From positions 6,107,386 through 6,171,385 of the forward strand of contig JABAKD010000021.1 of NCBI GenBank assembly GCA_012845835.1: a stretch of 64,000 bases of DNA. Reading direction: 5' to 3'. The notes under the pieces are model-generated. The model saw only the letters and a program-made list of their open reading frames with translations. It was not told the origin of the DNA and made no database searches. This document shows positions 35,966 through 62,015 of the stretch, in pieces (position 1 is the first letter of the stretch; every line of letters starts with the position of its first letter). Position numbers and translations under genes: made by a program. Source of the DNA: Undaria pinnatifida. Its lineage: Eukaryota; Sar; Phaeophyceae; Laminariales; Alariaceae.

Positions 35966-36709
35966 ATGAAATCTGGTCTACTTTTCCTCGTCGCCCTAAT
36001 CCTCACGAGGAGCTTCGATATGGGTCTGGGGGTTTTTGGGGCACCCTGCAATTCGGCCACAACTGTGGCAACAGAGGTGAACGTTTCGCCCGCTGCCGAT
36101 TTGACAAATATTACCACCATGTTCAACTGCGAGGACGGAGAGTTCGAAGTGTACTGGTCTGGCGCGGTAATCGTGTCTGGCACAATCGTCATCGGCAAAC
36201 GCACCACGGTGACAATTTTCGGAGACCAGGCCACCCCTTCATCCAGCATCACTAGCAACAGCAGCAGCTTCGACATCGGTACCCATGTTGAAGAACTCAC
36301 GAGTCCACTAGCGTTGCCGCTCGGGCTGACGTCGGCGGCCGTGGGCATCGGAAACCCGGACGAGTCTGCGTCAGGCGACACAACTACTACTTCCGGAGCA
36401 ATATTTTCTGTCGACGGCGGAACGTTAGTCTTGCAAGACTTGATCGTCCGCGATGGATACAGGGCGAACGCAACCGACGACGCTACCGGCGACGAGAGCG
36501 CAAGGGGGGGCGGAATATACGCCATGAGTGCGAAAGTAAACATCACCCGGTGCGAGTTCATGGATAACTTTGCGGTGTACTGGGGGGGCGGAATATATAC
36601 GGAAGAATCTACCCTCGTCGTGGTCGACTCGGTGTTCGACGGTTGCCAAGCCGGGTTTCAATCCCCCGCCGAGGACAACGAACATGATGGTGTTGGGGGC
36701 GGCATCGCG
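35966..36709 (+). CDS. Exon 1: signal peptide and first beta-helix repeats
   Basis: Start taken at the second in-frame Met (35966; the first is at 35885) because it has a good context (ccgccATGa) and opens a typical signal peptide, MKSGLLFLVALIL, before a polar stretch. Residues near the end show the first repeat pairs: GGGIYAM, FMDN and GGGIYTEE. It ends GCG|GTGAGC in phase 0 after GVGGGIA. Confidence 0.85.
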
Positions 36710-39700
36710 GTGAGCACACCTTACCGCATACGCTAAAATAGCACTTCGTCTTCAGGAAGTGGGTGCTGTGTTCATGCACAGCTGTGTTAAGATTCCACTT
36801 TGAGACTAACCATAACTCTTGACCTAGTTTTCAAAAGTGCTTGTATCGTTGAATGACGTTATCCGTCTCTTGAGAGGTACCTGTGTTATCCTTCCTCCGT
36901 TATATAAGTACGCCCTTGCGCTACCAGGTATATGGTAGTTGAACCGTTTACATGGACCCCCCTTGTTGAACTCGTGCTTCATGCTTGGCTCGCCGTTCAC
37001 GTTGAAAAGCGGAAATGAACTTGCCGTACTAAAGTTCTCGGCGAAGATCCAAGGGCGGGTGCTACCGTAAAGGTAGCACGTTTTGACGCAATAGAGGTGG
37101 CACGTTTTGGACTAATGCGATTTCGCTCAAACCCCAAAATCGTACAAATTTGGTTTATCTTTTGACCCAGGCTACGGTAGGGGGGTCCCCTTTTGGGCCT
37201 TATATTTCAGTGGCCAGGGGTCACTCGCGCGAGTAACCCCTTTGTTCCTATGCGATCTTATGTATTCTTCATGTTTTACATTGACGAAATGAATCCGCAA
37301 TGCAAAGGTGATCTAAGCTTTGCCGAAACAAGTGCCAAAACAATTTTCATCCGTGGGGTACAGAGCCACTAGTGCAACTGGCTCAAACACGCCAGTGAAA
37401 ATTAGGGTACCCCCCCTACCGTAGCCTTGGTCCTTTTTTCAATAAGTTCCTTCATCAGGTAGCCCATGGGGTAGTTCATCGTGTGACGCGTGGTACGATA
37501 GAGGTAGTACTTTATGTCCCAGACAGTTTCCGAATGGCTGGGTGCCCTAGCCCAACATGCTCGGAAATAGGCCAGTTTTTTGTAGCGTGGTTCTCGTTGC
37601 ATACCTAGGCAATGGGACTTTTTTATCCGGTAGCGGGTAAATTTATTTTCTAAATGTAAGTCAAGTTGGGGTCAAGAAGGACAGGTCTTAACCTCTTAAA
37701 CTGAGCAGCCTCAGAACATATGTGGTCCACCTCGATAGTATCACGCGTAATGTACTACACACGAGTGCTTCCGTTCGAGGTATCAGAGGCCCCTAAACAA
37801 GGCGCCTCGGACAACTAATGGCACAACCTCTGACACAGCATGCGCCCAGGGGTGAAACGCGCTTCACAGGAAGCATCCCTTGGAGTCGTTAGTCGGGGGA
37901 GCGGGTTGCGGTTGTGTTGTCTAAGAAGAGGTGAAGGCGTACTGCTTTGTGTGCAAGAACAAAGTTGAAAATTGACGTCCCGGCCTAGGTATTTTTCATA
38001 CTCCGTATGGAATCGTCAAATATTGTTTTGTTCTACGATTATTCATGCTGGGTGTATATATACTGACCGTCAAGACACGACGAGAGCACATCATCTAAGC
38101 GGGCGGTAGCGAAGTATAGGTTTGGCGTTGCGCAAAGGAGACGTGGCGATCGCTTCGTAGCTTTCCTCGTAAAACGCGTGCCCGGACCTCTTTCTTGTCA
38201 CCAATTCTGCCTTAATTTTCGAAAGCTACAGTGGTTCCTCCTAGTGACGAACGGCCCCGACGTTTGTCGCGTAGAACGCCCACGTGTAATGTTCTGTTTC
38301 CATCATGCCTCTTTCCTTGTCCCAACGCTGGTATCTCTTGTTCGCAAAGATCCTGAGTCATTTCACCGCCGTGCGGTACCTCAGGTGGGCGGCTTCCATG
38401 ATGTTGCCTCGCTTCATGCACGCTGCTCAATCTATTTCCACCAAAACCGCAATGATCGGTGTTGGACAGGCCAAAGCTTGCGACGTTCTAATTGACGGCT
38501 GCCTCTTCAAGGACAACTACGCCAGCAACAAGGGAGGAGGACTGCACCACGAGGATGGCAGAACATCTATTCTGGGTTCTATCTTTTACGTCAACGACGC
38601 GGGGAGAAAGAACGAAAAAGACGGTGGGTATTTAAGAATACCCATGTGGTAGGTGTTTTGCGACGTTGGTGGCTTGGTAATGCTGCTTGAATTGTTGACC
38701 GCTTTGTCACGAACGTGTCAATTTCTTCAATACTGTCAGTAGAATTTACGTGAGGAAGGTCATCGCTAACCTAGTGCCCTGCTGGTGTACCGCATGACAT
38801 TAGCGGGCGACTCTCAACCGTCCAGGCTGCCGTTCCCCAGTCAGATGACCTGCGCCGGCCAATTTCGTGGGAGCAAATCCGTATGTCCTTGCACGTGTCG
38901 CTGTGTTCGACTTGTCGAGGACGTTTATGGCAGCGCTGTGGTGTCACTTGTTGAAGTTGTATCCCCAACAGCTAGTCGATGCTCCTTTCGGCAGTTTTGA
39001 ATGTTGCACACATCAATATGTCGGACGCGTGCAAGACCATGCATGAAGAAAATTTCTCAACCACTACAGTCCATGTGAAACCGAGGTCGCCCACGTAGGA
39101 ACTCGTCCGCATCACTGAATGAACCTAGGTGCACCTACACGATCGCAGGCTTCGTACCTCTCAAAGGGATACTATAGAATATTGTCTCATTCCCGGCGGC
39201 AGTTCCCTTAGAACACGCTGGCCAACCTATAGTCCATGTATTTCAAATTATCGGTTTGTCCGGCTTGAGGAGCAATCGTCATGCGGTACGTCTTTTGCGT
39301 GAACCGTGTCTCAACAGGGGAAGTGATTGGACAAGGTGGTGATGTATCTCTTGCAGAATGCCGTGGGTCGTTCGAGGACGGACCAGCGTGCGAAGTTAAC
39401 GACACGGTTTTTTTCCAGAGCCGCGTGGGGAGTAAGGGCGGAGCGGTGTCCCTTTCTGGCGGGGCCGACTTTTGGGATATTGGTTTTCACCGTTGCACGG
39501 TGAACGGCAGCTCGGCTGGAGATGGTATAGAGGACGATCCCCAAGGAGAAGGGGGTGCATTTTCGGTCGGCCAGAATATAACGCTTCTCCTGGCGGACTG
39601 TATATTCGAGAACAACACCTGTGGCAAGAAGGTGTGTTGATTGCGTAGGTGACAATACCGGGCTACGGGTGGAGGGACCCTCCATGTATCCTATATATAT

Positions 39701-42700
39701 TCACGCGAGGAGCTGTAGGCCTGATTCTCGGACACAACGCTGACGAAAACCTAGTGCGTAACGACCTTATTGTGTCGTGAGCTTAGTATGACCCAAAAGG
39801 CAGTTAACGCGAAAACGTGTGTCAACGCCACTGCGCTGGTTTCTTTGTTTGTGAGGTTACCATCGGCCAGGCAGTGGTAGATAAGCAAGGCTCCTCCAAT
39901 CCGGGTGAGCGTGAATATTATTCGTTATAGTGTTGTGAGCGGTCCAAGCACATCGTTAGTTGGAATCCCAGCTGGCACTCATGAGAGGGCAGCAGGTGGC
40001 CGTTTATAATTGCATATACTTTCATGACCGGTTTTCTTGGTTTTCAGCTCTGCTACCTTTCTGGTACGGCGTTCACACTCCATGAGAGCCGCTGTAGGCG
40101 TCACTACCTCCATGGTTTCCATCGTAGCTTTAGTGTAGCGTACACCGATCGGCGTCCTTCTCTGAACAAACACACTCGATTGCTCTCACCACGTAGGGGA
40201 AAGTACCCCAAGTATCGAGTTTATCACAACATCTTAGCCATTACACGGGGGGTGTCAACGTCCTCTCTCAACTCGATACGCCACGTACCTGAAATCTGTA
40301 GAACAGACACAAAGTTATCCGCGTCACCCGGACTCTTCTTCCTCACTGGTGCGTGTTTGCCGGACAACATTCTTAACATCAAAGGGCGGGGTTATGAGCC
40401 TGTCATCAGGTACCAGCTGGGACCGTCCTGGTGCTACTGTCATCATGCGGAATTCCTTGTTTGGTTCCAACGAGGCGGAGCTCGAAAGCGGGGGCGTGAT
40501 AAACGCGGGTGAGTTCTGCACGACGGTGGTTGAGGGCGACGGAAACCGTTTCGAGTTGAACAACTGCTACGGGGATGGGGGCGTAATCGTGGCGACGACG
40601 GACACGTCCATCACCATCGAAGGCGGCTTGTTCATCAACAACCGTGTCGGAGAGGTAGGCGATATATCTGACAAAATGATTGACTTTGGTGGTTTCATGT
40701 ATTTTGCCCTGCTTCGTTCGTTAGAGGCAAACCATCAATCCATGTTGGGGGTCTGCGTCGTTCGTTTCAAACCCATACGGGTTTTGAATACCTCCAACTC
40801 CCTCAAACACGATAGATTGAATGTTTTGCGAGAATGCTGCACGTTCAGCATGCCTACCGGCCGTCCGCGTCTGCGTTACCTTTAGGGCCTAAATATACGT
40901 CCCGGTGAATGTTTGGTAGACTCGCTTAGCTTTGCTTGGATGTCGACGCTGCGATGCCCAAAATGCCAATGAGACGTAAAGTGCGGTAGAGATGTAACAG
41001 TCATCGTTTTGAGGGACTCTACTTGACAGGTTCAAATCCCGACCAAGAAACAGAATTTGATAACACAGAATGAGAAGCGGACCAAATATCTTATGCTCAT
41101 CTATACAACGAAATTCGTGCTGGAAAAATGGAGAATTTCCGACGATTAGGTGATAAGGAGTTTCGTCATTCGGAAACACATTGACCTAATAAGTTCGATA
41201 CCTCCATCGCTGCACGCGCCATCACCTTCATGGATACCCCTTCAACGCTTGCAGGTGTAGGTCTTACCCCGACCAACTTGAAACCTATCTACATGCACCC
41301 CTCATACAACACGGATAGATTTCATGGCATTGGCGTGGAACAATTGTTCAGGGGTAAAATAGATATCGCATCGGAGGTGCACTCCGGCCCGTGCTTGCCT
41401 GAAGCTCGGCCCCGTGAACAGCTATGCCGCTGGAAAGCGGTGTCAGCCCTTCATTAGATGGGACCCACACCCGTGCCGGGTGCTGAGGTCTTGATATATG
41501 GCGACCCGTCCTCCTTTTTCCGCCCCACGTCTACTACCAGCGTGGTAAAGCGATTACAGCCGCCACGAACTCTGTACTCCTTGAGTCCTGAAAATATCGT
41601 TATCGTGTTTTGTCAGATTTCGTTAGTGCTTTGGCCCGTACCCTTGCCCTTCTCAGAGTGGCGCGGTGGTTTACTCAAAAGGAAACGTCGCTGTGGTGGG
41701 CGGGAATTTCACCCTCAACGAGAGCCCCGAGAACGGAGGCGTTATTTTTGCCTCCGAGTCGAGCGTATTCACCCTGTCTGGTGGAAATTTCGAAAACAAC
41801 GAAGCAAAAGACGGCGGGGTAATCAACGCGGCGTCTGGTTCTACTATTGAGATTAAGGGCGGCGTCTACTCTGGAAACGTCGCGACCAGCGATGGAGGCG
41901 TGTTCGCGGTACTCGACGGAGCGAAAATCGAGGTAGGAAGAGGAACGTTGACCACTGTATCGATACTACTCGCAAAAATTTTGGACGTCGACGTTTCTCA
42001 TGAATCTAAGCCGTGCGGATAGCCGTCGCGTTACAAATGGTTTTTTTTCTGAAATGGTCGCGGTTTGGGTGAGGTATATTCAAGGGAGCAGTCGCAGTTG
42101 GGTAAAATGCGGCATGAGTCTCCTCGCATTCAGCAGTGGGAATCCCACTGAAACCTTCATCCTGCTTTCAAATGTATCAAAAGCGGAACAGTGTTTGCCC
42201 CCTACTTTAGGGCGCATGAGCACTCGTTGCGCATCATGGTCTGTCATTGGAACGGTGAATACATAGAAGTGTCACCCTGCATCTTTTGATTAGACACTTG
42301 TGGCGTATCTTGCATGCGATGACACATTAATCAGCATTCGCCAGCGATCTTTGGTGCGGACTTGTGGACTGCTATTCATGGGAGCGGTTTCCACAGGCTT
42401 CACCACGTGTTAATCTTCCAGAAAATCATGGTATGAGAGCGACTACATCAAACGCTTCATCTTACCTGAACAGATCACAGGGGGAAACTTTACCAACAAC
42501 AAGGCCGACTTCGGAGGGATGCTGTACAAACAAGGAGGGGGCGAGACTACGTGCGCGGGAGCGCTTATAATGCAAAACGAAGCCGTCGACGGCGGTGCCA
42601 TCCACGTCATCGATAATGCGAATCTGAATTGGGCTTGCGATATACGAGAAAGTTACGCGATCTCTGGACCTGCCATGTACGTGAACCTCTATGATAAGAA

Positions 42701-45700
42701 CTACTGGTACTAATTTGGCGAGAGCAGTTTCGTTCTGAATGTAGGTAACCGGACGATAGCAAAAAACTCATTCGCAGCTGGGCTTGCAGTCTTGCTCTTT
42801 TCTATATATAGTATTCCCTCGAATCGTCTACCGTTTTGATCGAGAGAGATATTGTGCGGTGCGGAACATCTAGAACGTTCGGTGTGGCGAAAATTGGCAA
42901 TTTTGCGCTGCCCGGATTGGGTATAAATCACCGAAACAAATATCGCGGTAATGAAAAAGGAGTTGCACTATGTTGTGTATTGTTGCTCTCTGTCTGCGTG
43001 ACTAGTCGACGCCAACATGATTGTCATTGTGGATAATGTCCTCGATCGCATGTTTTTTGGTGGTGGTGCTATCCAGATATGCCCGTGACAACGCGACTGT
43101 GTCTCTGCAAGGAATGTCGCTGGTTGACAACACTGTCGCTCGAGGCAGCGTGATCTTCGTCATTGACAGCGTTCTCCAAACATACCAGGTGCGTCAGTTC
43201 TTTAGGAAACTTGAAGGAGAACATACTTGATCTTAACGGGCAGCCGCCGCTCGTATACCAAGAATTTGGGTTGTTTACGTCTGCTGCAACCAGGATTCGG
43301 TTAACACGCACGAACGCTTGAGCTACAGTACTGGGCAATAAAATTACCACGTCACACGTGCCCTGGTGTTACCTCCCCGTCATTGCTTTCGTGCAAGTTT
43401 ATTTCCCCGCTTTCCCCCCCCCGAGTTTGTACTACTTCGTGGATGGCCCACATTATGATACCCAGGATTAGCCGTTCGAAATATGTTTTGTCTGCCCCAC
43501 CGTGGTTGGCCATGATGCCCCGGGGCGATTCGCCTCCCGAGTGTTACGTGGATGCACCTGTTCGAACCGGCGTAACACGCTGGCGTAATTGGGGTGTATC
43601 TGCGCAGGTGGAGTTTAACGATTCCTCAGGCTCGTTGGACCTGTCGGCGGTGCAAGTGCACGAAGGTTCGATTTACATGGCAGAAGACACGTCGTTCGAA
43701 GGCTTCAAAGGAGAGGTATGTGTCGATAGTGTGGCATCCTAGGTTTGTGGGCAACGCTGAGGTCTGCCTTTGAAGTTTCTTGCTTCATTTGTTTTATGGA
43801 CGTAGGGTAAGTGTATGAAAGCACCGTTGTTTCGATATCGTCATGTATGCTGCAGTGGACCAAACCACGGTAACGTTTCGATACGACCCGGGGTGTTGCG
43901 CTCACACGTCCGCTTTCAGAGTTTTGTAACCACCTACCGTGGTGGCCACTACTATTGTTTCTGCTCCACTGCAGGCAATCGTTTTTAGCGAGGGTGAACT
44001 CTACTTGGACAACTGCAACTTCAGCGGAAGCACATCCTTGGTACTAGTGTACTCGGAACCTAATTCCACCGCGGTTATCAGGAACTCCGTGCTGGGGACC
44101 AACAACTGTGAGTTGTGGATGGTTGAAGTACCGATGATGTTGCTGTTGTTACTCAGTGGGCGTTTTTGACACAGGTGCTTGTAGTGGCCAGCGCAAATAC
44201 CTGCCACGATCGCTCAACTTTCTCGACTCTGCAGCTCACACAACTTGCACAACAGATGACGTCGCTTAAGAACCACTTTTGTTTTCGTAGCTCGTACGAA
44301 CCCGTAATGCTCTTCGTTGTTTGCTCTCCTTTCTTAGCTCCCCTACATCTTGTTATTCCTGTGGCGAAATGTTTTTACTTGTAACGGACTGAAACTTGCG
44401 CCGTCAGACTTGGCGCTAGCCGAGGCCAGCTCCAGCTCGGGTGAGCTACCGAATGCTGATACGTTCACCAACGCCGACGTCACATGCGGAGATATGATAC
44501 CGGGATCTGAATGGACAGAAGATTCCTCCAGTGATTCTCTAACATCTATCTGTTCCGAAGGGGCTGCGTGTTTGGAGGGCGATCTAGGGGTGTACTGCGA
44601 ATGCTACTACCCGCAGAGGACAATTTCCAGCTCCAGAGAGGTAACCTATTGGTCTAGAATAATTTACTTGGTGTAAAGTTACGGTTTACGTTTTCTCTGG
44701 AGCGGTTTCTGATGCTGGCCAGAGCGCGAACTCTTACGAGCCAGGCTAACACACCGTTTATGCTGCTAAAGCGAAATTGACGACATATATGTATATATAT
44801 ATGTGCACAAGTAAGTTAACGTACGCGTGTAGCCAGTATGTGCTCGTCTTTTTGCCTGCCGCAACTGATTTCTTTGTTCCACTTCCACCCGAAATAATTA
44901 ACGATGGTAACAGAGGTGTGTAAGCGGGGACGGCACCGTGCTAGCCCTGACTCTAGGAAAGAAACCGGGAGCTACCTTCTATCCGGATTTGGTCGAGGGG
45001 AACGTCGTCCTATCGTACAATTCAAGCAACACGAAGGCGGGAGTCTCATCATCTTCGAGCACCGGTGGCATCATCGGCATCAACGGCAGCGGCAGTGTGC
45101 CCTGGTCAGGGGAAGGGGACGGAGGCTTAGTGTGGAACGTGGAGGCGTCGCAGCCGACAACGCTAATGGAATGGACGGTATTTCCGTCGACGGGGTTGCT
45201 CTTTCCGGACGAAAGGTGTGCGGAAAGTTCCTCGCGGTCCTGTCTTCTGGTCCCGATTTTCGTTGCAGGGTTCAGTTTCCCCTCCCTCATTGACGATATT
45301 TACAGAATTACCGACATCGGAAAATAGGCTCATCACGCGTCTCCAGAACCCCATAAACCAGGTTCAGACACATCTCTCCTCGTCCAGGGACCCCTTTGAG
45401 CTTCGTCGAAAGATCATATATAGGTGCAACGATTCACTTTTGTGGCATCTCACTAGCTTGGTCGAGTTCCCTGCCTTGCGGACAACGGCCTTTAGGTGTA
45501 GGAGTGTCGAAGAATTTGGGGTAAATGTTTCTATCCGATTTGGCGTCTCAGGTGAGGCACAGGCGAGCAAGGCTACGGGAGGGGGGGTACGACGCTTGCT
45601 ACGATAGCGAGGTAGCACATCTCGTCTGAGAGGCTTTCTGAACGACGGGGCAAGTTCGTCGGCAATGGTTCTTTATTTCTTCATGATGTTCGTTCTACAC

Positions 45701-47517: not shown

Positions 47518-47552
<35 letters not shown>

Positions 47553-50500
47553 GGGGAGGGGGCGGGGGCGGGGGCGGCTCATGCTTCTTATACAGTAGAT
47601 ATACATTCGTTGCATTCGTACGTCTAACCCGTCAGGTACCGAGCCTTTTCTAGGTTGCCAATGCAATTTGAAACGGATATATGGGAATAAATGTTACTCC
47701 TCCCGGTTGTCTCCGTTCAACCCCATCTGCAGCATTACCATTACAGTAGTCACCCGGCCCAGCGATTCTTTCGACGGCACCGCCAACGTCACCTTCGCTG
47801 CCATGGACTTTCTTCAACAGTCCAGCTCGTTCGAGACCACGTCGACCGCCAACGAAGACGAAGACGATGACGTTGGCGCCGGAACCAACGCAGCTCATGG
47901 TCACCAATCACAAGCGACTGGAACCCTGGTGTCGTCGTCCCAAGGAGAGCTGCCGGTAGAACGGATGCTCGCTTCGGTTCGGTTTAATGTCACCTATTAC
48001 CACTGCGCGGCCGGGAGCTTCTGGAACTTCACGTTAGACAGCAGAAACAGCACTGACGAGGTCACTGCTAGCTGTCTTCTATGCACGGAAGAGATGGGAG
48101 GCACGCCGGAGGTAAATGCGCCGGGGGTTTCTGGAGTTGGACTTGACCTCTTCACATTTGTTCCTGAACTGAGATTTCGTTTTTGGTTGAGCCAGTGCGC
48201 ACTCCGAGAATGCGGAAGCAAATTGGCCGCGGCGTTGTCCCAACGGTGATAGGTTGAGCCACAACTCCTACAAACGTGTGAACGTCGTGTGTGGAACCCA
48301 TCGCAAAGATTCCTTTAGAAAAGTTCTCTGTGCTTCACAGAAGTTGAGGTACACCGATAACCACTCATGTTGATGTCGTGTGTAGTCGTGGAACGCACAA
48401 ACGTCCTGTCTTCACCTCTCCCCCTCTTCTGTGGCAGTTGTGGTACGTATATATCTTCATTTTTAGTGCGCAGACCAAGGCCACAGTTGAAACCTTGCTG
48501 CTGTAACATGTTTTTTTTTCTGGGAGGCTGGAATAGCATCTGCCAATGCTTGCCGTTTGAGAGTCATCGCTCTATGGCGCGGCAGGGTTGGAACTTCTTC
48601 GTATAAACGTTTCTTACCTCCTACCCGCTTAACTCCTCTAACTCGGAACCATCGGTGGATACGGTACTTATGCGAGTATGTTTCCTCCGGAACTGGCGCA
48701 TAGGTAGGCTTGTCTGTTTTTGCTAACGAATGTCTTCGAAGTCATGGTTCGTTTGATATACTGAACTTCTGCTTCACCCCGACAGTGAGATGTCTCGTGC
48801 CGCCAGCCGTAAATTGTTGCGTGACGTCGGCATGTATTGACGTGCTTGGCGCCTGAAACGCGCCCCTCTTCTGCACACGCAGGGCGTAGATTGTTCAAAT
48901 GCTGGGGCGACCATTGGGGCATTGCCGATCAAGTCCGGATACTGGCGGGCAACCCTCGACCAGGTCTATATCCGCGAATGCTCTAACCAGGTGTGGAGGC
49001 GATGGGCATTTGGTTGGATGTGGGAGCGATGGGCATTTAAGTGGATGAGATCATCGCTGCCGATTCATGGAAGTGCTTAGTCATATGTTGTTCCCAGCAA
49101 GTCCGTGTACTCTCATGTTTACACCGTAAGTGCGACGTGATTGCACGAGCCGAGCAGAAACTCCCTGCACAGAGGTAGAATGTTCTGTTGCTCGAGACTA
49201 CGTATTGGGTATTGCATATGATCAAGAAGTTGCGCTTTCAAGGTATATATTTGGGTGCGAAGTGTACACCGATGACGTCTATAGGTTTCGCGTAGGTGAT
49301 AGTAGTGATGTTTTTCTGGCATCTAACGTAACGCCGTACGCGTGCATCTGACCCTGCAACGGCGACCGCTATATGAGATGCGACAATTAACCTGCATAAT
49401 ATATGTTCCGCTAGCTGTTCGTTTTTGAACAAAATCTTACCACAATCGCAGGAAACAGGTACACTGAACAAATTTTATTTTTAAGAAATGCGCCCACGCT
49501 CCTACCCCTCTTCAAACACGCGTTGATCGGCCCAACACCCCAACCAAGAACAGCCGCCCGAAACATATTAACCGCGAAATGTACCTACCGACACCACTCG
49601 CCCGTGTGAAATCACGATGATTCGTGGCTTACGAATACACGAAATAAAACACGCTAGTGGCCGGCGCACTGAAGTGAGCAAACGCGCAGTATTTGTTTAC
49701 ACGCGCGGCCCAGCGCGGGAGGTGACTGCTTACTCCACCGTGTTGGTGTCCATGAGTGGTTCGGTTGGGCTGACTACCACAACACGTGACTCAGAGCGTC
49801 GGAATCGTTATGACTTACAGCGCTTGCGTCCAAACATGTGTTCCGTTGCGTTTTCCGACGATATTGAGTTTGGGTGAAATCCTTGTATCGGCACTTTTTA
49901 CAGGACGCGTGCACGGGGGGAACGTCGGTCGCGAGGGTTAACGATTACTGCGGCGATGGCTATGAAGGACCTCGTAAGTGACGTTGTTTCGCCGGGTAGT
50001 TGATGCACCTCGAAGATGCGAATCGCGTTTGTTTGGTCCTGTTGAAAACAAGACCTCGAAGCATTGTACAACGGGGCTGTCTATTGAACAGCTTTCGTCG
50101 GTCGTATATTATAGTCTTTGTGCGTCGAAGCGCTTTACAGGAAATTTTTTTTTTTGCGCTTGTCGATACAACGATAGGGGCATGCTCTGCGGTGACGTTC
50201 GTGATAGCTCCAGCGGGAACGCATCCACCATTGTCCATGTACCACGTAGGCATGGCCGACATAAAACGTATGCGAAACCTTCCTCGCTGTTTTTTCAAGA
50301 CGTTTGTACACTGCCAACCATCCCGAGCTCCCTCTACTCTTTGTCCACCACAGGCAAGTTGTCTCAGGGGCGATTTTCTGGTGGAGGTAACGACAGCCCA
50401 TGCCCTTTTTCTCGTAAGGTTCTCGTTCAGAGCAGATTGTACCGTGTCTAACATGCACATGATCAATCACGTCTGGCGTGTCATACGTGGCGCACCGTAG

Positions 50501-53500
50501 ATGCTGCAAGTTAGGGCTGAAAAATTGATTCTGCAAGTTAGGACTGAAAATATGATTCTGCGAAATCCAGCTACCAGGTATTTTCGTGCAGTGCAGTCTC
50601 CCGCTGAGGTAGCCACCCATAGTTTTCCGCCGGTGGAACAACCAGCGGAAAGGGGGGTGGATACTATCCAACAATCAGACAAAGCAAAAAAACTCTTCAT
50701 CTAGCAATTTGAAGAAATGGTTATACCGAACCAAGACGCTTCAGGGAAAGGAAAAAAACAGTTTGACCCTTTTGTGCGTTCGCTGCATGATGGATCCCTG
50801 CCGCATGATGGATCCCTGCATGTCGGAGCCGCAATGTTGGGTTGCAATGCGTTCATAATTGCAGTCCTCCTCCCTAGCATGGCGCAATCGCCCACATCTT
50901 GCAGAATGTACGTTGCCCGTCTGGGGAAATTGTTTTGCGTCGTTCGTGCTGTACCGTTAACGTGTTCGCTCTTCCGGTCCGGCCCTACCGCTTGGTTGAC
51001 TCCGCCCGCTGCAATAAAAGAGTGTGAAGTGTGTTCCGATGGATACGGAAGAGGAGCTGCGAATGCGTGCCATGTTTGCACGAATGGCTTCAAAATCGGC
51101 ATGTACTTCCTTGTCGTCATTTCGGTGCTATTAACGCTCGTCATCATCGCTCTCCTAGCGGTGTATCTTGTGAGTTTGCCTGTTGACGCGGTGTTTGAAC
51201 GTGAACTTCGCCATTGTTATCAACAGTAATGTAAACTGTTGTTCTCGGATCGTGCTGAGGGTATTTCGTCCGATTGGAGATACATTTTAACACGTCGTTG
51301 CGATTGGTCTAGACCGTCGATGACTGCACCACTGACGTGTACGCAGCCACACGCGATCCGGGTGACGGCCTTAATTTGGTGTGTGACCGTCAGAGAATGC
51401 TAAAGCGGAGTAGCAAAACCAAACCCAACACTCTCGATACCGACGTTTATTCAACCTTCTTCTCAGATTGGAGGCAAGGACGCGGTATCATCCACTGTTG
51501 CGAACACCAAGCAAACAATTTTCTCCGTACACCGTCGTGGCTCCGGGGGTTCACTGCCAACGGGTGGTCGCGGCAGCATTGGCTTTGGGCCCCTCCACGC
51601 CCGCAGCGGCAAGTCAACATTTTCTTCCATTGTTAGCATCAATATCTCGAAACACGGCAGAAACAAGGAGACGGCAGAGGTCGACAACGGCATCGTCGAT
51701 AGTGCTAAAAGCTTCGGGGGAAGCAGGCAGGGAACAGGTTATAGTAGCGGTGATAGTGTAGGTCGGGCAGGATCAAAGGGTCGTCGCTGGATGACTGGAG
51801 TGTCTAGTTTCTTCAGTAGCACTCGCGGGAAGGTGGCCACACGCGGAGCTTCAAGCACAGAAATACATGGTGACAGCGCTAGTGACGTTGTTCGAGCCAT
51901 ACCCAAGGCTGGACGCTGGATCCCTGGACGGTCAGGAATGTTCGGGAACACTCGCCGAGCAGTCACGGTTCCCGGTGGTCCAAGTGCCGACGCGTCTACT
52001 TCGTCGCGAACGGCCGGGGGGAATAGCCCCGCTGCGTTCTTGGGGTCACGAGATGCTGGACCAGCTGTCTCCGAGGGAGGCTTGGGCCGGGCTTATGGAG
52101 GAAAGGGGGTGCCGCGTACGCGGGTAAACAACACAACCAAAACAAAGACCGCAGCTGCCACCAGGATTGGAGAAACTCTGTCTGCTTTGCCCCTATCGAA
52201 GATCAAAATCGTCATAGGTAAGCTAGTATCGAACACTGTATGCGTCCGTCGCTCAACCAAACACAGAGTTTCGAACTTTTACCCCCACAAGTCTTTTCCA
52301 GCTCAAGATGGACTTTCCGAGCTATATTCCCACAGTAGGATTGTTGTCTAAACTCGACGCATCACACCTGTTTTTAGTCTGGGGGTGATGGCGATGAAAC
52401 CTTCCAAAATGAGAGGCGATACGCAAACAAAGTGAAGACTCACGCACAGCACGAAAAGGGGGTTAATGGAACCAGTTGTCGCAGAGTCGACTCTTCGAAG
52501 TCGACGTACCGAATAGGATCTTTTGTTTTGGGGGCGGTTGCCATTTGTAAAGCCGAGATGTTCGCGTGCAGAGCAAAGATGATGACTAGAGGAGACGGAC
52601 GAAAATCGTGAAGTGGTGCATGAATGGTCCTTTCGCATAATGACTACCTCCCCGATCAAACTGCTAGTCAGTCATAATAACACCCGAGCGATCCAGAGCC
52701 AGATCAGCGAACACTGGGATGTTTCTGGTATGCATATTGCTCTGTGTGGTGCGCGTTTGAGATTTCACGTAGGCTACGGAAGATTCTGTACAGAAACGTT
52801 ATGTGCGTCGAACCTCGAACCAAGATGAAGATGGCATCTACTGCCAGATTAAAGGCAACGTGGTCGAAAGCGCGCTTCGGGCCAGGGTATATGCGTCGTC
52901 GTCAATCTCAATGACCTGTTGTTTTTCTTCACCCGTTTCTCGCGCAACGCACAGAAAGGGCAGCAAATAAACGAATTCAACTGCCACTTTTCTTAGTGAC
53001 AAACCGCCACACATGCCGTAATCGTGGACGTTCCGAATTGATTTAGACATCGCAACCGTCCCCTCTTCTGTGTTCCTCGAAACGCCGCGCCTCACTTGGA
53101 TTAGTGGTTGCAAATCAGCAGAAAACGGCGTTGAGTCCGTTCATAACGACTGTTTGCTACCAGGACGCTGCTCTCATTGTCTCATCCCCGCTGCCCCCCC
53201 GCCCCGTGCTTCGTCCTTTTCGTGGTCCGCATGCTTACCTACTTTGCCGTTCCCCTCGCTCGGTTATGATGCTGGCGCTGTGTGTATCGAGTTCAGTTGT
53301 CTGGCAAATATCAAGCGCGGTAAGTCGGCACATATTTCGTGCTTTTTGAAAGCTGTGCCCGTACTACGTGTTTCAGGTTTTGGTTCTGATACATGCTGAG
53401 ACTTTGAACCGTCGAGACCATGTCGACCAGCAATGACGATTGTTGGATAGTTGCGCTCGCGAAGAAACTTGAAATATCCCGATCTGTGGCAATGTTTACA

Positions 53501-56500
53501 TCTCAAAGCTAGAAGCCGGACGATACGCAAATAGCTTGGTTGCACTTGAAATGTTTGGACATTCTCGGCGAAAAAGTTCATCACATCTGCTTCGTAGTAC
53601 GTGGAGTGCCCGTGTTTTCACATGTAGGTGCCCCCTGAATCGCAGGGTCGGCAGCGGCATCTAACAACCGCTTAGTTTAGTGGTGTTAGAGATATTTTGC
53701 GTAGTCCAGTTAATCTCCAAAAAATATCAAGTTGAAACCATACGCACTGCGAGCCCTTTCTCCGCTACCCCCATCCGCCACCCCGATGCGTCGTTTTCTG
53801 CTACTCCGAGTTTAGCTGTCGGTGCTGCACCTTTTTGTGGATGCAATGTCCAATGCTTGCAACGACATGAAACCCCCTGTTTCTGCCCTGGTATGCATGC
53901 AGTTTGCCGACGTCACCAACACCGGATTTCCGCCTATTTACGACAAGTTCCTCTCGGTAATCGGGATGTTCTCGTTGGATCTGGGATGGATTCTGTCGGC
54001 GGCGTGTCTAGCGACCGGCGTCACATTCTACGACAAGTTACTGTGAGCGGCTCGCGGAAGGGCATTGCTTGGTATTCGTAGGGTGTCGTTGCGTGCATCA
54101 CCTACGGTACTGGTGGGTAAAATATTTTTTGCACGCCCCTGGCCAGACGAGTGTTGTGTGTCACGGAAGAAACCGACTACATTAGTAAAAACAAACCGTG
54201 GTGTAGAAATCCGATTCAATCCCGGTGCACTAGGCAATTGGTAAATGATGCGGTAACATCTGTATCGGATCTGGACGTATTCGCCAGACCTTAATATGAT
54301 ATGGCTCATCAGAGATCGAGGCTTGGGGCTCGGAAGAGCATAATGTATCGAAGTCCGAACCTAGTAAGTGGGGTACGCATTCTGTAGTTGGGTAGGCGTC
54401 GCGCTATCTCCTCTGTGGCGCGAGTAGTGGGCGTTACACGACGTCCAAACCCGGCTGTCCCTGCGACCAAGCAATTTCCGGCGTATACATGAACAGAGTC
54501 AGTCTTCAGTCCATGCTTCACTATTGATATGGTGTGAGATTTTTCGATGTGTTTCGTTTCCATTGTCTAGTGATTTCTGCCGCTCCTGATTCCTGAAACA
54601 TGGCACACCAGTGCTCATCCCACTCGACGACTTCACTTGGGAAGGGTGTGTTATTCGAACCCAACGAAGAGGGCAGTTACCCGGCCGATAAACAACGTCA
54701 ATCCCGCCCAAGGAACCACAGCAAGCATTAACACTGTGTGTGAAATGTATATTTCTGTTCATACCGCTGGCTACCCTTCAGCTACGTCTCGTAGGCCGTT
54801 TGATCCCGTTAGTGATATTATGTCATGCCCAGGTTTCGATTTTTGGGTTCGAAGCGGGTTAAGCAGCAATCGTGGCCGAGCAGATCCCGTTCTTGATGTT
54901 GATACCGACTGCTCTGTTCGTCGCGTGTGCCACCGGTGTATGAAACCGTCCGAATGTTGTTTTCGTGCGCAGGATGGTGACCATTGGACCTGTATTTCTT
55001 CTCGGCCTCTTGGGGGTCACCTTTTACTTGGGGTCGAGGCGGACAAAGCCTAGCATCGCCGAGGCGCCGATCATTACAGCGCGCAGCAGGAGACCGAGCA
55101 GCTCAATGGAGAACAGTGTTCAAGTGTTCCCGAAGGTTGGGGGCATCGGCGACCAACAACACCACCCGACGTATGACGCGGCACATCCAGCGGTCAGCCC
55201 GTCAGCGTCTCGACGACCTGCGTTGGGTTCGGGAGGGGTGACAAGTAGCCAGGATCCGCCTACGAAGGTGACGAACGCCACACATGGTCGCGAACCGAGC
55301 TGGATGATACACGTTAGTGAAGATGCTGCCGGCGAATCAGGGCAACCAAACGCTGTATCCGCCTCCGGCCCTGTGGAACGACCTATCCTCGCTTCTGTCC
55401 ACTCTCTTCGGAGGATGTGGCAGACTGGTGCGGGGAACGATATGGATGCTAAGCAGGTGTGTTCAGTGGCACATTAGCGTGGTATCGGGCCGGTCACAGT
55501 GTGTTCTGTGATACGCGCGCGTGGGTATTGAAACAAATGGTTGATCGGTATGCACTATTGAGTGCCATGGTAGCGTCAAGAGCATTGCTAGCAACACGAA
55601 GAATAATCAAAAGACAGAGCGGTGGCTTCCCAATTGACGGAGTCTATGTAACGCACGGATATCGTATCAACGTGCTCTTCCATGTAGCACGGCGTTGTCG
55701 TATCCAAGCCGGGTTACACTTCAACGTGGTATGGGGGCGATGGGATCGAGGGACATGACATAAGAGGATTTACAGGCGCTGTACCACACTGACTGTGTAG
55801 CCAAAGTGGAGCGTGATCAGGTTGAATCATCTCACAGCGTCCGCAACGACGGTGCGTCGTGAGGTGGTATTACCTGCACCGCTGCCCAATCCCTATAGCA
55901 CTACCCAAGAAGCGGTCGAGACGCATGCTACGATAGAGATAGCATTTTTAGCCTCAAATAGTTTCTGAATGAAGGGGCTTCTCAACCAAAAATTTTTGGA
56001 AATAGGCCCAGTTTTGGGCGTGGTTCTTGTTGTATACCAAGGCCATGGCATGTTTTCTCCGGTAGCTGTTTTTAGTTTATCCAAATCACCTTTGAGAGAG
56101 GTCTTATGCTCCGAAATTGAAAAACCTCGGAAAAAAAGGCGTGCAGTTTTTTCGTCGCACGCGTCTCGAGGGGAATCGCTTATGTTCGGTAGAAGGACGA
56201 TTAGTCGACTTCGTTTTGTTTAGAAAAACGATGAACACGAAGTCAACTCCTCTCAACGCTGGCAGCCTTGTCCAAGCCTAGAGATTTTGACTGTCGACCC
56301 GTTCCTTCGACGTTTGCCCTTCGCTTTTCTCTGCTGGCCTGTCGACGCCTTTTTTCCCTCTGACAGAGCCAACTGTGGGGCCTATTTGCCCGCCATACGA
56401 CAATGATCCTCATAATCCTGTACCTCGTGTACAGCCAGGTGTCTACTGTGGTAAGAACAGCGTATAAATCGCACCGTCCTTGTGGTCCTCCTCACCAAAA

Positions 56501-59500: not shown

Positions 59501-62015
59501 GGACCAAGGTACAGTATGTTTCTCGCATCAAAACACATACCCACGTGGAAAGCCTTCAACGTGTATTCGATCTAGTCACACTTTTCCCAGCATAACTACC
59601 TTGAATATATCGGCTGTGGCACGATAATTGAAAGATGTATAAAAATGTTTTCCTCACGGGAAAAAACTCATAGCTCTTGCGCTGGTGCTCACAGATGTGT
59701 GTTCAATCGTTGCCCTGCGTCCTGTGTTTTCATTCTTGTTTTTGGCCTTTAACACAACAGGTTTTTGAGTGCATGAGGCGGCTGCTTCTCACCGGTATGC
59801 TGGTATTCATGCCAGATGCATCAGTACAGGTGGCTTTCAGCTGCATCTTTGCTTTCATCAGGTATGGCGGGGGAAGCCTGCTGACCGCACCGCGCGTGAA
59901 GCGAGACTGGCCTCTTGTGACGACCTTGCGTATCCCATCGACAACCGTTTGAGTCCTCGCCGTTTACCACCGAACCACCTTGTACCGGCCCATACGTACC
60001 GGTTGACATGTTGGCGTGTCATCACAGACGTTGACGACCGTCCAATCTAATGTTGGGGCACCACTCGGTGGGCGGGAGGAGGGGGGGGGGGGGGGGAGGC
60101 TCCGGTAGACGATTGGCGTTACACCCATAGAATGCAAGGCGGAAGACGAGAGGCACAGAAGATGGGGTCATTGTTACAGCCGATGGTTTGGTCGGCTCGG
60201 TGTCATTCGTCGCGGTTCGCGTGAGTTGTTACGTATCTGGTGCCGCCTGCGTGGTTTGTTGTATGCACCGCCGTGGAGAAAGCGCCAGCAATATGGAAAA
60301 TTTTCAAACAGCTGCAACCGTGAGTGTTTTATATCGGCGTTCGGGAACAATAGGGGTATCTGACCGGTCCATCGTATGATAGCATTGACCACAAAAAACA
60401 TGACATTTAAACCAAGAGCCAGAAAACAAAGGCCGCGATAGCACCTTTCAACTTTTAGTATCGCATCCGTGTGGTGCACCGACAGTAGGTATTTCGATAG
60501 AACGGCAATGTGTCGTGTGTCAAGGGTCGATGGTTGTATATATTGTTTGCGTGTTGGACCCACGCAACTATACAATCGTCACCGCATAAAGCACCGCGCC
60601 ACAACACCAAGGCAAAGTGGGTCCATCAAGATTTACGCTCGCTGTTAACATGGCCAAGACAACTCATCCAACGAGTGCATACAATAATGGAGAACGCACA
60701 CATATTCCAGCATCCCACTGAACTTTTGTTATATTTGTGGTTGAAAATGTAATGACGTGGTCTCTCTCCCTCCTGCCGCGCTGACTGCCCTGAACCACAT
60801 GTACATGCCGTTTGGTTTCGGATGAAGCCTGTGGGCCTTCGAGCTTCAAAGACCGCACATTGACAGCTTGGAAATGCAGCTATACCGAGCTGTGAGTACA
60901 TCGATGACTGGCTTGTAGATGTGTCCCGCGCCCGTCAGCTTTATCCTCAGATAGGGGCCGCACCACTTGGCCCATTTGTTTTTCGGTTTCATTTGTTTTT
61001 CCGCCAAGCTCCTCAACAGGAGAGCCGGCCAATATTTTTAATGTTTTACTGTGTAAGCTGGTAAGCGTTTTTAATATACTTCTACTTTGCTGAATCGTGA
61101 AGCGGTCTTATCTTACCTGGTGGTAGTGCGGAGCCGGTTGTTGGGTACATTGTGTTGATGAATTCAATTCATGAGCCTTATAAGTTGTAGATACCCGTCG
61201 ATCGGAGCCACGAGAGCTCTGATGGAGCCTGAACAGTATCCCAGGTTAACGTCAAGTCTAAACAGCGGCAGTGATTGATGTCGTATAACCAACACCGCAG
61301 CAAGGAACAGGAGTACGTTGGTGTGCATCGCTCTGACCGTGTATCTCAGTCGATGGGAAAATTGTGACGCCCGAACAAGGTACGTCATTGTAGGTGGTCA
61401 TCGATCTGCAAAACTGTTCCGGCTGAAATGCGTGAACTTTGAGTTTCCTTGTCGTCAGGTGTCAGCAATAGAACCGTACAACATGCTCTTGGTTTGGGGC
61501 TAATCGTAGACGGGAGGACCAGCCGGGGAACTTTGTGTATGTTTAACCAAGCGTGTTTATGTTACTATTCTCACATCAACTCATCGCGATAAGCTAGTTC
61601 ATGGCATCATCTCATTTTTCACCGGAACGAGGGCACACGTCGCAGAGACAAATGGACTCTGCCGACACCTAAACGCGCACTCAACGTTGAAGACGTCTTT
61701 CAAAGTGTCGCGTCTACCGTTTAGTCAATGCCTCGTCGCATTAAGTCATTTTCAGTATCTAGTATTTAGTTTCCTTCCTTGCTTCGTCTGTTTCGCGTTT
61801 GTTTCACTCGGTGTGCCAAATACAAGGGATGCCTGGTGATCTTCTTCACCAATTTCTTGGCTTTGATCATTCAAGCCGAATTTGCAGACCAAAACTCAAG
61901 CAGCAGCGCTGTTTATTCGGCGTTGCTGATCATGGTCCACGTGATGTTTGTTCTGACCATATGCTGGAACAGCTGGGCGACAATGAGGGCGACCTTCAGT
62001 AGGCGACACGTCCAG
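35966..62015 (+). CDS. Pmp-repeat, Cys-rich, multi-pass cell-surface protein (25 exons, 3' end not found)
   Basis: Gene model assembled by reading frames and splice phases. Exons: 35966-36709, 38470-38623, 39318-39631, 40385-40654, 41657-41932, 42474-42676, 43077-43188, 43608-43715, 43975-44107, 44408-44640, 44914-45215, 47733-48111, 49904-49973, 51021-51169, 51467-52217, 53297-53319, 53903-54042, 54973-55456, 56367-56450, 57686-57818, 58439-58476, 58936-59028, 59761-59861, 60828-60891, 61827-62015. They total 5547 nt (1849 codons), every junction keeps frame and all introns are GT-AG. Domain order: signal peptide (residues 1-25), GG[AGV][ILV]/FxxN repeats (about 190-770), EGF-like and Cys-rich part (about 800-1120), TM1 (about 1124-1147), disordered loop (1150-1400), multi-pass domain (about 1400-1849). 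The repeats match those defining chlamydial polymorphic membrane proteins, which are widespread in brown-algal surface proteins. A role at the cell surface (adhesion, sensing or recognition) is inference. No stop codon was found, so the C-terminal tail is missing. Confidence 0.85.
37170..37426 (+). mobile_element. 257-bp MITE, copy 1 (intron 1)
   Basis: Terminal inverted repeats GGCTACGGTAGGGGGGT and ACCCCCCCTACCGTAGCC. Just inside are palindromes, GTCACTCGCGCGAGTAAC on the left and a decayed form on the right. Same length and sequence, inverted, as 63592-63848. Outer bases GACCC/GGTCC suggest the TIR extends a few bases further. Confidence 0.85.
37484..37665 (+). repeat. Family I repeat, copy 1 (intron 1)
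   Basis: GACGCGTGGTACGATAGAGG to TTTATCCGGTAGCGGG. Collinear with 45591-45750 and 55919-56085. The 257-bp MITE lies immediately upstream and a hairpin (GTGCTACCGTAAAGGTAGCAC) at 37058-37080, so the MITE may be nested in a longer element. Confidence 0.6.
38470..38623 (+). CDS. Exon 2: beta-helix repeat
   Basis: Acceptor GGACAG|GCC (phase 0), donor GACG|GTGGGT (phase 1). Reads AKACDVLIDGCLFKDN and then GGGLHHED, a complete FxxN/GGGx repeat that continues exon 1 without a gap. A nearer AG at about 38380 was not used because its phase is wrong. Confidence 0.75.
39318..39631 (+). CDS. Exon 3: beta-helix repeats
   Basis: Acceptor CAACAG|GG (phase 1), donor AAG|GTGTGT (phase 0). Contains GQGGDVSL, SKGGAVSLSGG, EGGAFSVG and CIFENN, matching the Pmp motif pair. 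Confidence 0.8.
40385..40654 (+). CDS. Exon 4: beta-helix repeats
   Basis: Acceptor ATCAAAG|GGC (phase 0), donor GAG|GTAGGC (phase 0). Reads GGVMSLSSG, LFGSN, SGGVINAGEF, DGGVIVA and LFINN. The acceptor has a poor pyrimidine tract but joins exon 3 as ENNTCGKK|GGVM, exactly the expected repeat. Confidence 0.8.
41657..41932 (+). CDS. Exon 5: beta-helix repeats
   Basis: Acceptor TTCTCAG|AGT, donor GAG|GTAGGA, phase 0 to 0. Four repeats are visible: SGAVVY, ENGGVIFA, FENNEAKDGGVI and YSGNVATSDGGVF, spaced about 22-25 residues apart as in a beta-helix coil. Confidence 0.85.
42474..42676 (+). CDS. Exon 6: beta-helix repeats
   Basis: Acceptor TGAACAG|ATC (phase 0) and donor CCAT|GTACGT (phase 2). 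The AG seven bases downstream would break frame. Reads ITGGNFTNNKADFGGML and MQNEAVDGGAIHV. The junction to exon 7 makes GPAIYA, another repeat motif. Confidence 0.8.
43077..43188 (+). CDS. Exon 7: ectodomain
   Basis: Acceptor ATCCAG|A (phase 2), donor CAG|GTGCGT (phase 0). Reads YARDNATVSLQGMSLVDNTV. The DN in LVDN fits a degenerate FxxN turn. Confidence 0.75.
43608..43715 (+). CDS. Exon 8: ectodomain
   Basis: Acceptor TGCGCAG|GTG, donor GAG|GTATGT, 108 nt, phase 0 to 0. Reads VEFNDSSGSLDLSAVQVHEG, beta-strand rich, without a clear GGA motif. Confidence 0.75.
43975..44107 (+). CDS. Exon 9: last beta-helix-like segment
   Basis: Acceptor CTGCAG|GCA (phase 0), donor AACT|GTGAGT (phase 1). Reads AIVFSEGELYLDNCNFSGST and then AVIRNSVLGTNN, ending the repeat-rich ectodomain. 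Confidence 0.8.
44408..44640 (+). CDS. Exon 10: linker and EGF-like Cys cluster
   Basis: Acceptor CCGTCAG|AC (phase 1), donor GAG|GTAACC (phase 0). An acidic Ser-rich linker (EASSSSGELPNAD) is followed by TCGDMIPGSE and a Cys cluster ICSEGAACLEGDLGVYCECY. Confidence 0.75.
44914..45215 (+). CDS. Exon 11: extracellular beta domain
   Basis: Acceptor GTAACAG|AGG (phase 0), donor GAAAG|GTGTGC (phase 2). Reads RCVSGDGTVLALTLGKK and a Ser/Gly-rich stretch, then TLMEWTVFPSTGLLFP. An alternative AG two bases downstream is excluded by phase. Confidence 0.7.
45570..45750 (+). repeat. Family I repeat, copy 2 (intron 11)
   Basis: Begins with a MITE-type end (GGCTACGGGAGGGGGGGTAC), directly followed by GACGCTTGCTACGATAGCGA and, at the end, GGGATTTTGTCATCCGGTA. 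This junction suggests family I and the MITE share terminal repeats. Confidence 0.55.
46725..46900 (-). repeat. Family A head fragment (intron 11)
   Basis: ACATCACCCTGTTGACCTTC through GGAGTCGCCGACCTATATC to ATCCCACAGATGGAGTTATT: the first 170 bp of family A, reversed. Confidence 0.75.
47490..47580 (+). repeat. Family A internal fragment with poly-G (intron 11)
   Basis: GTGGACGTGGAGGCCTGATT and TTGATCAAAAT followed by an uninterrupted G run of about 33, as at 15940-16010. It lies 150 bp upstream of exon 12. Confidence 0.7.
47733..48111 (+). CDS. Exon 12: extracellular domain before the membrane
   Basis: Acceptor CTGCAG|C (phase 2) after a 2.5-kb repeat-laden intron; donor GAG|GTAAAT (phase 0). 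Reads SITITVVTRPSDSFDGTANV, an acidic segment (NEDEDDDVGAG) and YYHCAAGSFW...SCLLCTEE, the start of the GCC2/GCC3-like Cys-rich region. Confidence 0.8.
49904..49973 (+). CDS. Exon 13: Cys-rich segment
   Basis: Acceptor TTTTTACAG|GAC (phase 0), donor CCTC|GTAAGT (phase 1). Reads DACTGGTSVARVNDYCGDGY EGP. Spliced to exon 14 it gives CGDGYEGPQCEVCSDGYG, a standard juxtamembrane Cys motif. Confidence 0.8.
51021..51169 (+). CDS. Exon 14: Cys pair and transmembrane helix 1
   Basis: Acceptor AATAAAAG|AG (phase 1), donor CTT|GTGAGT (phase 0). Reads CEVCSDGYGRGAANACHVC followed by a strong helix, MYFLVVISVLLTLVIIALLA. With a cleaved signal peptide the preceding part is outside the cell and the following exon inside. 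Confidence 0.85.
51467..52217 (+). CDS. Exon 15: 250-residue disordered cytosolic loop
   Basis: Acceptor TTCTCAG|ATT (phase 0), donor ATAG|GTAAGC (phase 1). The open frame runs through 751 nt with no stop. Composition is Ser, Gly, Arg, Lys and Thr rich with no recognised domain. It ends LSALPLSKIKIV, the entry to the multi-pass part. Confidence 0.8.
53297..53319 (+). CDS. Exon 16: 23-nt micro-exon
   Basis: Acceptor GAGTTCAG|TT (phase 1), donor GCG|GTAAGT (phase 0). It supplies VVWQISSA, bridging KIKIVI of exon 15 to FADVTNTGFPPIY of exon 17. The strong donor and exact phase fit support it despite its size. Confidence 0.7.
53903..54042 (+). CDS. Exon 17: multi-pass domain
   Basis: Acceptor GCATGCAG|TTT (phase 0), donor TACT|GTGAGC (phase 2). 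Reads FADVTNTGFPPIYDKFLSVI and DLGWILSAACL, a membrane-associated segment with conserved-looking Pro and Cys. Confidence 0.85.
54973..55456 (+). CDS. Exon 18: transmembrane helix and Ser/Pro-rich loop
   Basis: Acceptor GTGCGCAG|G (phase 2), donor CAG|GTGTGT (phase 0). Opens with MVTIGPVFLLGLLGVTFYLG, a helix capped by SRR, then about 130 residues rich in Ser, Pro, Ala and Gly without a recognised domain. Confidence 0.8.
55919..56085 (+). repeat. Family I repeat, copy 3 (intron 18)
   Basis: GACGCATGCTACGATAGAGA, GTGGTTCTTGTTGTATACCA and GTTTTCTCCGGTAGC, collinear with the intron 1 copy. Confidence 0.6.
56367..56450 (+). CDS. Exon 19: transmembrane helix
   Basis: Acceptor CTGACAG|AGC, donor GTG|GTAAGA, phase 0 to 0. 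Reads SQLWGLFARHT and then MILIILYLVYSQVSTV. Confidence 0.85.
57686..57818 (+). CDS. Exon 20: extracellular Cys loop and helix start
   Basis: Acceptor CCCGCAG|GTG (phase 0), donor ATCT|GTGAGT (phase 1). Reads VFQTFACEDYPEIDKSYLRA, a second Cys in IECH, then YKIYAAIMICI, the start of the next helix. Confidence 0.85.
58439..58476 (+). CDS. Exon 21: 38-nt exon inside a helix
   Basis: Acceptor TGCACAG|AT (phase 1), donor CTG|GTACGT (phase 0). It completes MICIYPLGIPAAFGYLL with exon 20; the phase fit on both sides is exact. Confidence 0.8.
58936..59028 (+). CDS. Exon 22: intracellular turn
   Basis: Acceptor TGAGATAG|CGT, donor GAG|GTACGG, phase 0 to 0. Reads REKIDQRRLNQTV and FLWSAYYPNRYYFE, a basic turn followed by the aromatic entry of the next helix pair. 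Confidence 0.8.
59761..59861 (+). CDS. Exon 23: helix pair
   Basis: Acceptor ACAACAG|GTT (phase 0), donor ATCAG|GTATGG (phase 2). Reads VFECMRRLLLTGMLVFMP and VQVAFSCIFAFI, two hydrophobic segments. Confidence 0.85.
60075..60097. repeat. G-rich run in intron 23
   Basis: An 18-nt G run inside GGGCGGGAGGA...GAGGC. It is not followed by family A unit sequence. Confidence 0.8.
60828..60891 (+). CDS. Exon 24: loop after helix pair
   Basis: Acceptor GATGAAG|C (phase 2), donor GCT|GTGAGT (phase 0). Reads SLWAFELQRPHIDSLEMQLY RA. The frame is closed by a TGA just upstream of the acceptor, which fixes the exon start. Confidence 0.7.
61827..62015 (+). CDS. Exon 25: last two helices found
   Basis: Acceptor ATACAAG|GGA, donor CAG|GTGCGA, phase 0 to 0. 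Reads GCLVIFFTNFLALIIQAEF and ALLIMVHVMFVLTICWNSW, then a basic end, FSRRHVQ. An upstream AG at 61768-61769 would add 19 residues in frame. The donor implies at least one more exon. Confidence 0.8.

What the first reader, a model, noticed from the sequence alone, without database searches (positions are those of the whole stretch)
35966..62015. Very large Pmp-repeat surface protein fused to a multi-pass membrane domain
Seen: 25 exons join in consistent phase into 1849 codons, with about ten FxxN/GG[AGV][ILV] repeats, Cys-rich motifs (GYEGPQCEVCSDGYG) and several hydrophobic helices. Established: GGA[ILV]/FxxN repeats define chlamydial Pmp autotransporters and recur in brown-algal proteins. Inference: here they form an extracellular beta-helix on a eukaryotic multi-pass receptor-like scaffold, an architecture with no assigned function.
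Basis: partly seen in the sequence, partly recalled or inferred. Interest (0 to 1): 0.75.

Follow-up and report, generated by a model that had tools for sequence, protein, structure and literature searches.

The report
Kelp beta-helix surface protein with TRP-like membrane domain
This kelp gene appears to make a large surface protein whose outer part is built of bacterial-style beta-helix repeats and whose membrane part distantly resembles a TRP ion channel; it is one of a large family in its genome and a plausible, untested sensor of the algal cell wall.

Summary

The gene is one of at least 12 copies on one contig within 1.5 Mb, and 59 near-complete single-frame relatives of its membrane domain lie elsewhere. 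The "multi-pass scaffold" looks TRP-like: the best PF06011 matches in the whole genome are members of this family, one above Pfam's cut-off; the window protein itself does not match PF06011. GCC2/GCC3 and an autotransporter barrel were not found.

Best explanation: a wall-facing beta-helix ectodomain tethered to a TRP-like channel, for sensing or adhesion. The architecture is supported; the function is inferred.

The parts
35966..36709 (+). exon 1: probable signal peptide (by eye and hydropathy), N-terminal cap and first Pmp rungs
   Evidence: open frame with three GGGI motifs; its end is matched at 5 further C28 places
38470..38623 (+). exon 2: Pmp rungs
   Evidence: acceptor chosen by rung register; only the window itself matches this piece
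39318..39631 (+). exon 3: Pmp rungs
   Evidence: splice ends kept in 8 of 8 C28 paralogs read; pooled pN/pS 0.44
40385..40654 (+). exon 4: Pmp rungs
   Evidence: relatives on C28
41657..41932 (+). exon 5: Pmp rungs; modelled as beta-solenoid
42474..42676 (+). exon 6: Pmp rungs
   Evidence: 63% identical paralog exon with AG and GT ends
43077..43188 (+). exon 7: degenerate rungs
   Evidence: joins on both sides read through in paralog L053
43608..43715 (+). exon 8: degenerate rungs
43975..44107 (+). exon 9: degenerate rungs, end of beta-helix
44408..44640 (+). exon 10: linker and Cys motif
   Evidence: gappy alignment
44914..45215 (+). exon 11: membrane-proximal domain, ends FPSTGLLFP
   Evidence: 41% identical in one C28 paralog
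47733..48111 (+). exon 12: membrane-proximal domain
   Evidence: gappy alignment
48883..48990 (+). exon 13: Cys-rich GYWR motif
   Evidence: read through with exon 14 in L053, L054 and L056
49904..49973 (+). exon 14: Cys-rich CGDGYEGP
51021..51169 (+). exon 15: Cys-rich end and first transmembrane helix
   Evidence: hydropathy 3.27; matched at 12 further C28 places; weak acceptor score
51467..52217 (+). exon 16: long basic loop, probably cytosolic
   Evidence: 34 K+R, 13 D+E, no Cys in 241 aa
53297..53319 (+). exon 17: VWQISSA, start of TRP-like domain
   Evidence: phase fit; C32 relatives match query 2-112 in one frame across it
53903..54042 (+). exon 18: TRP-like domain
   Evidence: 4 of 4 paralogs read keep splice ends; pooled pN/pS 0.18
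54973..55456 (+). exon 19: transmembrane helix and loop
   Evidence: the loop after the helix was left out of the alignment query
56367..56450 (+). exon 20: transmembrane helix
57686..57818 (+). exon 21: VFQTFAC loop, probably extracellular, and helix
58439..58551 (+). exon 22: YPLGIP segment
58954..59028 (+). exon 23: FLW..YYFE segment
   Evidence: weak acceptor score, but the register fits the 13 paralogs aligned
59761..59861 (+). exon 24: FECMRRLLLTG segment
60828..60891 (+). exon 25: transmembrane helix end
   Evidence: weak acceptor score; register fits
61827..62015 (+). exon 26 (E27): last two transmembrane helices
   Evidence: 5 of 5 acceptors and 4 of 5 donors kept in the paralogs read; pooled pN/pS 0.18
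62153..62184 (+). provisional last exon with stop
   Evidence: phase fit only; not tested in paralogs

Best explanation
The gene encodes a plasma-membrane protein of a kelp. A signal peptide exports about 1,130 residues. The first 770 or so are predicted to fold as a right-handed beta-helix made of Pmp-type rungs, followed by a membrane-proximal domain and a Cys-rich GYWR domain. One helix enters the membrane, a basic loop lies inside, and a TRP-like multi-pass domain follows. It most likely works as a tethered sensor: the beta-helix binds or lies in the alginate-rich wall (or meets a partner cell or protein), and load or binding on it is passed through the Cys-rich neck to a TRP-like channel. 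Shown here: gene, repeats, model of one exon, family-level TRP similarity, topology signals and purifying selection. Inferred: signal peptide, surface location, ligand and channel activity.
Confidence: 0.45

Rival explanations
1. A diversifying recognition family (immune, self/non-self or gamete recognition): clustered copies with faster-changing beta-helices bind varied partners, and the membrane domain is a signalling anchor rather than a channel.
For: At least 12 copies within 1.5 Mb on one contig in both orientations. The ectodomain exons tested change roughly two to three and a half times faster, by pN/pS, than the two membrane exons tested. Ectodomains are modular: one C61 relative adds Notch-type LNR modules. 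A paper on brown-algal sex chromosomes speaks of putative transmembrane proteins in gamete recognition (PMC12592211, passages), without naming this family.
Against: No sign of dN/dS above 1: pairwise values for ectodomain exons are 0.15-0.49, with several synonymous distances near saturation. No population or pathogen data.
Confidence: 0.25
2. A passive adhesin or wall tether: the beta-helix binds wall polysaccharide and the membrane domain only anchors it.
For: The best structural neighbours of the modelled exon are PL3 pectate lyases, and PL6 alginate lyases are also listed.
Against: The membrane exons tested are the most conserved, more than an anchor needs. Beta-solenoids of unrelated function score nearly alike.
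Confidence: 0.2
3. A decaying or wrongly joined gene: an ectodomain gene and a membrane gene that merely lie next to each other.
For: Several relatives elsewhere carry in-frame stops. Some acceptors in the model are weak and the stop exon is unsettled. The joins 14-15 and 15-16 are not read through in any relative I looked at.
Against: The order ectodomain, neck, membrane domain recurs on C28, C32, C55, C61 and C52, and neck then membrane domain on C24. Splice ends and codon constraint are kept.
Confidence: 0.05

Closest known systems
Chlamydial polymorphic membrane proteins (Pmp; PF02415, TIGR01376)
   Same: FxxN and GG[AGV][ILV] rungs above curated cut-offs; beta-solenoid model of one exon
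   Different: Spliced eukaryotic gene; multi-pass membrane domain instead of a C-terminal autotransporter barrel (no barrel family listed)
TRP family PF06011 (fungal members such as Flc proteins and fission yeast Pkd2 are recalled, not from a call)
   Same: Family members match profile positions of about 213-412, one above the cut-off
   Different: The window protein itself does not match; the ectodomain is a Pmp beta-helix, not the lipid-binding ML-like domain recalled for the fungal proteins
Polycystin-1 (recalled)
   Same: Very large modular ectodomain on a TRP-related membrane half, by recall
   Different: No comparison was run; no polycystin turned up in the searches of solved structures
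[quoted passage not shown]
   Same: The same repeat-based label
   Different: The passages give no architecture or function; I could not compare sequences

Membership tests
Pmp autotransporter | Pmp repeats PF02415 / TIGR01376 | tested here: met
   23 bits against 20.6; 34.3 against 15
Pmp autotransporter | C-terminal autotransporter beta-barrel | tested here: not met
   no barrel family in Pfam up to E 10 for either half; helices instead
Right-handed beta-helix | parallel beta-solenoid fold | tested here: met
TRP family PF06011 | profile match above the curated cut-off | tested here: inconclusive
   window protein no match; relative on C24 29.1 bits against 28.5, 30.3 in the genome search; 6 of 29 members at E 0.1, all below the cut-off where shown
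TRP family PF06011 | cation conduction | not testable with these tools
   needs electrophysiology
GCC2/GCC3 (ephrin-receptor-like) proteins | GCC2/GCC3 Pfam match in the Cys-rich part | tested here: not met
   not listed up to E 10

The most novel reading that the evidence does not exclude
Brown algae evolved their own large class of wall-integrity or adhesion receptors: TRP-like channels carrying exchangeable bacterial-type beta-helix ectodomains, some with Notch LNR modules, which do for the algal wall what integrins and wall-sensing receptor kinases do elsewhere.
Probability: 0.2. Interest if true: 0.85.

Novelty: new variant of a known kind. Interest (0 to 1): 0.55.

Why it matters
How brown algae, which became complex multicellular organisms on their own, sense their alginate wall is open. 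[quoted passage not shown] A large, conserved, probably surface-facing family with a TRP-like membrane half is a concrete candidate set. If the mechanism is right, the question becomes testable by recording and by gene removal in a model brown alga. My ten searches of the open library turned up no description of this combination; most papers of subscription journals are not held there.

Tried and rejected
A PF02415 search of the whole genome found nothing at E 0.001; the model has 19 positions, too short for a search of 511 Mb, so it says nothing. phmmer of the two halves listed 5 solved structures up to E 10 for the membrane half (best E 0.041, an ABC-transporter permease) and 4 up to E 1 for the ectodomain (best 0.8); the profile of the membrane domain listed one at E 0.72; I take none as a relative. 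Pfam also listed Motile_Sperm at E 0.21, below its cut-off, on residues 937-973. The membrane-domain profiles found no relative in the viral collection or the prokaryote genomes, by pattern scan and tblastn. NCBIfam gave nothing usable for the membrane domain, PHROGs nothing for the repeats. AF2 on one exon without an alignment was poor (pLDDT 53.2). A gene finder with a low exon penalty added spurious small exons. The mini-exon 61305-61316 was dropped. Positive selection on the ectodomain was considered and not found. In that table exon 6 was read twice from one and the same paralog (L055 and L074 overlap), exons 6-12 rest on that one paralog, and one of four exon-18 rows and one of five last-exon rows gave no dN/dS because of saturation. 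The rung spacing of about 26 residues came from a hand-fitted pattern and is not used as evidence. Two of the nine upstream stretches read for Pmp repeats, L052 and L078, showed none. L012 was left out of the alignment because of a stop; C61:2462455 (11 stops) and shorter matches were left out of the count of 59.

Full report
Source. The window is C28:6107386-6171385 of a 511,146,479-base assembly in 68 contigs. Contig C34 is 16,510,065 bases long, exactly the scaffold N50 printed for the Undaria pinnatifida assembly in PMC7058681 (passages seen). The printed scaffold total is 511,280,173 in 114 scaffolds, slightly more than here, as if small scaffolds had been left out. I take it to be that kelp.

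Gene. Stop-free stretches with Pmp motifs lie on the + strand from 35966. A simple splice and codon model, then curation by hand, gives a chain of GT-AG exons. Without the dropped 12-nt exon and the provisional last exon it has 26 exons and 1,904 codons up to 62015. To avoid circular training I retrained on 10,572 codons from paralogs outside the window. The region then scores 228.6 with 23 exons on the + strand, 5.0 on the other strand, -1.7 and 26.4 on the left flank, and at most 2.8 in 20 shuffles.

Proof of joins. Paralogs L053 (C32) and L056 (C30) carry window residues 599-1138 in a single open frame at 28-30% identity, with gaps in the middle; L054 (C32) does so in two pieces of one frame. 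That reads through the eight joins from exon 6 to exon 14, which the window gene splits; just after that all three leave the match, where the window also has an intron. Of 124 matches to the membrane domain, 59 cover most of the 330-residue query in one frame (query starts 6-19, one 48; ends 319-329; two hold one in-frame stop, counted). They read through the joins from exon 18 to exon 26. C32 and C30 relatives that match query 2-112 or less in one frame read through 16-17, 17-18 and 18-19. By my count that is 18 of 25 joins. The first five joins and 14-15 and 15-16 rest on phase, splice sites and rung register. Short stretches from C28 paralogs show AG and GT at the homologous ends of exon 3 (8 of 8 read, of 11 known) and exon 18 (4 of 4, of 8 known). 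For the exon ending at 62015 the acceptor is kept in 5 of 5 and the donor in 4 of 5 (of 8 known).

Membrane half. The window's own 760 C-terminal residues match no Pfam family up to E 10. In the family, PF06011 (TRP channel) appears weakly in 4 of 14 members up to E 1 and in 6 of 29 up to E 0.1; DUF6338 appears in 3 of 14 and 4 of 29. A PF06011 search of the genome gave 15 matches up to E 10 from 22 scored candidates, three of them below E 0.01. Eight of the 15, including the six best, overlap membrane-domain matches. The best, on C24, is above the cut-off (30.3 bits). Scanned as a single protein it gives E 5.8e-07 and 29.1 bits over profile positions 231-408; its neighbour gives 28.0, just below. 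That C24 gene matches the window's domain at E 3.4e-26 and 3.4e-22. The TRP link is thus by way of relatives, and partial. Charge and Cys distribution fit the topology: ectodomain with 51 K+R against 148 D+E, 33 Cys and 22 NxS/T sites; first inner loop with 34 K+R against 13 D+E and no Cys.

Family. A Pmp piece that corresponds to exon 3 occurs at 12 places on C28 between 5.86 and 7.31 Mb, window included, on both strands (74 matches in all). Relatives on C32, C30, C35 and C57 match the ectodomain end and the neck in frames of equal length, so probably in one exon; I read three of them. Pmp-type repeats were found in 7 of 9 upstream stretches read: L051, L053, L054, L055, L056, L077 and L079, but not L052 (which starts downstream of the neck) or L078. 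That L077 and its membrane domain, about 10 kb apart, are one gene is inferred. L051 gives PF02415 at E 2.9e-25. L077 holds Notch LNR modules (PF00066, E 3.8e-07) and PF02415 at E 3.1e-18. Counts are lower bounds, since the tool scores only the best candidates.

Selection. Against C28 paralogs pooled pN/pS is 0.44 for exon 3 (eight paralogs), 0.30-0.40 for exons 6-9 and 0.50-0.65 for exons 10-12 (one paralog), and 0.18 for the two membrane exons (four and five paralogs). Of 406 pairs of single-exon membrane domains the 11 with dS below 0.7 have dN/dS of 0.11-0.30. All tested parts are constrained, the membrane exons most.

Mechanism. Supported: a beta-helix ectodomain joined to a TRP-like multi-pass domain, kept by selection in many copies. 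Inferred: that the ectodomain meets the wall or another cell and that the membrane domain conducts ions. I rate the sensor-channel reading 0.45, a diversifying recognition family 0.25, a passive tether 0.2.

Literature. [quoted passage not shown] PMC8078820 names Chlam_PMP once, in a paper on modelling repeat proteins (search listing only). The terms I looked for in PMC7929912 (Undaria) and PMC12592211 (sex chromosomes) gave no passage on this family. From recall only, similar GYWR Cys-rich multi-pass proteins occur in other protists, so I do not call this categorically new.

On rereading I corrected which joins the relatives read through (exons 6-14 and 16-26, not 6-15), the rate ratio of ectodomain to membrane exons, and the C24 entry in the list of recurring orders.

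Noticed in passing
37166-37432 and 63586-63852: Inverted pair of a 267-nt element, 85% alike, in intron 1 and in the 3' flank, with a 52-nt piece at 62479-62530; looks like a small non-autonomous DNA transposon.
   Followed up: partly
8558-10758: Large palindrome: ten inverted pairs, the longest arms 353 nt (95%) and 244 nt (93%).
   Followed up: partly
5822-6787 (- strand): 321-aa open frame that looks to the eye like the end of a non-LTR reverse transcriptase; no Pfam match at E 0.01.
   Followed up: partly
7000-35260 (- strand): The gene finder gives a weak 4-exon, 144-codon model (score 26.4), above the shuffles; not identified.
   Followed up: no
L077 5260-8676: 1,139-aa open frame with Notch LNR modules (PF00066) followed by a long Pmp stretch (23 GG motifs); a modular relative on C61.
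   Followed up: partly
G000:C61:2462455-2463330, C19:3231734-3232540, C25:193262-194152 and others: Copies of the membrane domain with in-frame stops, probably pseudogenes of the family; only described.
   Followed up: no
G000:C32 0.37-1.78 Mb and G000:C24 1.38-1.52 Mb: Further clusters of relatives, apparently with fewer introns than the window gene.
   Followed up: partly
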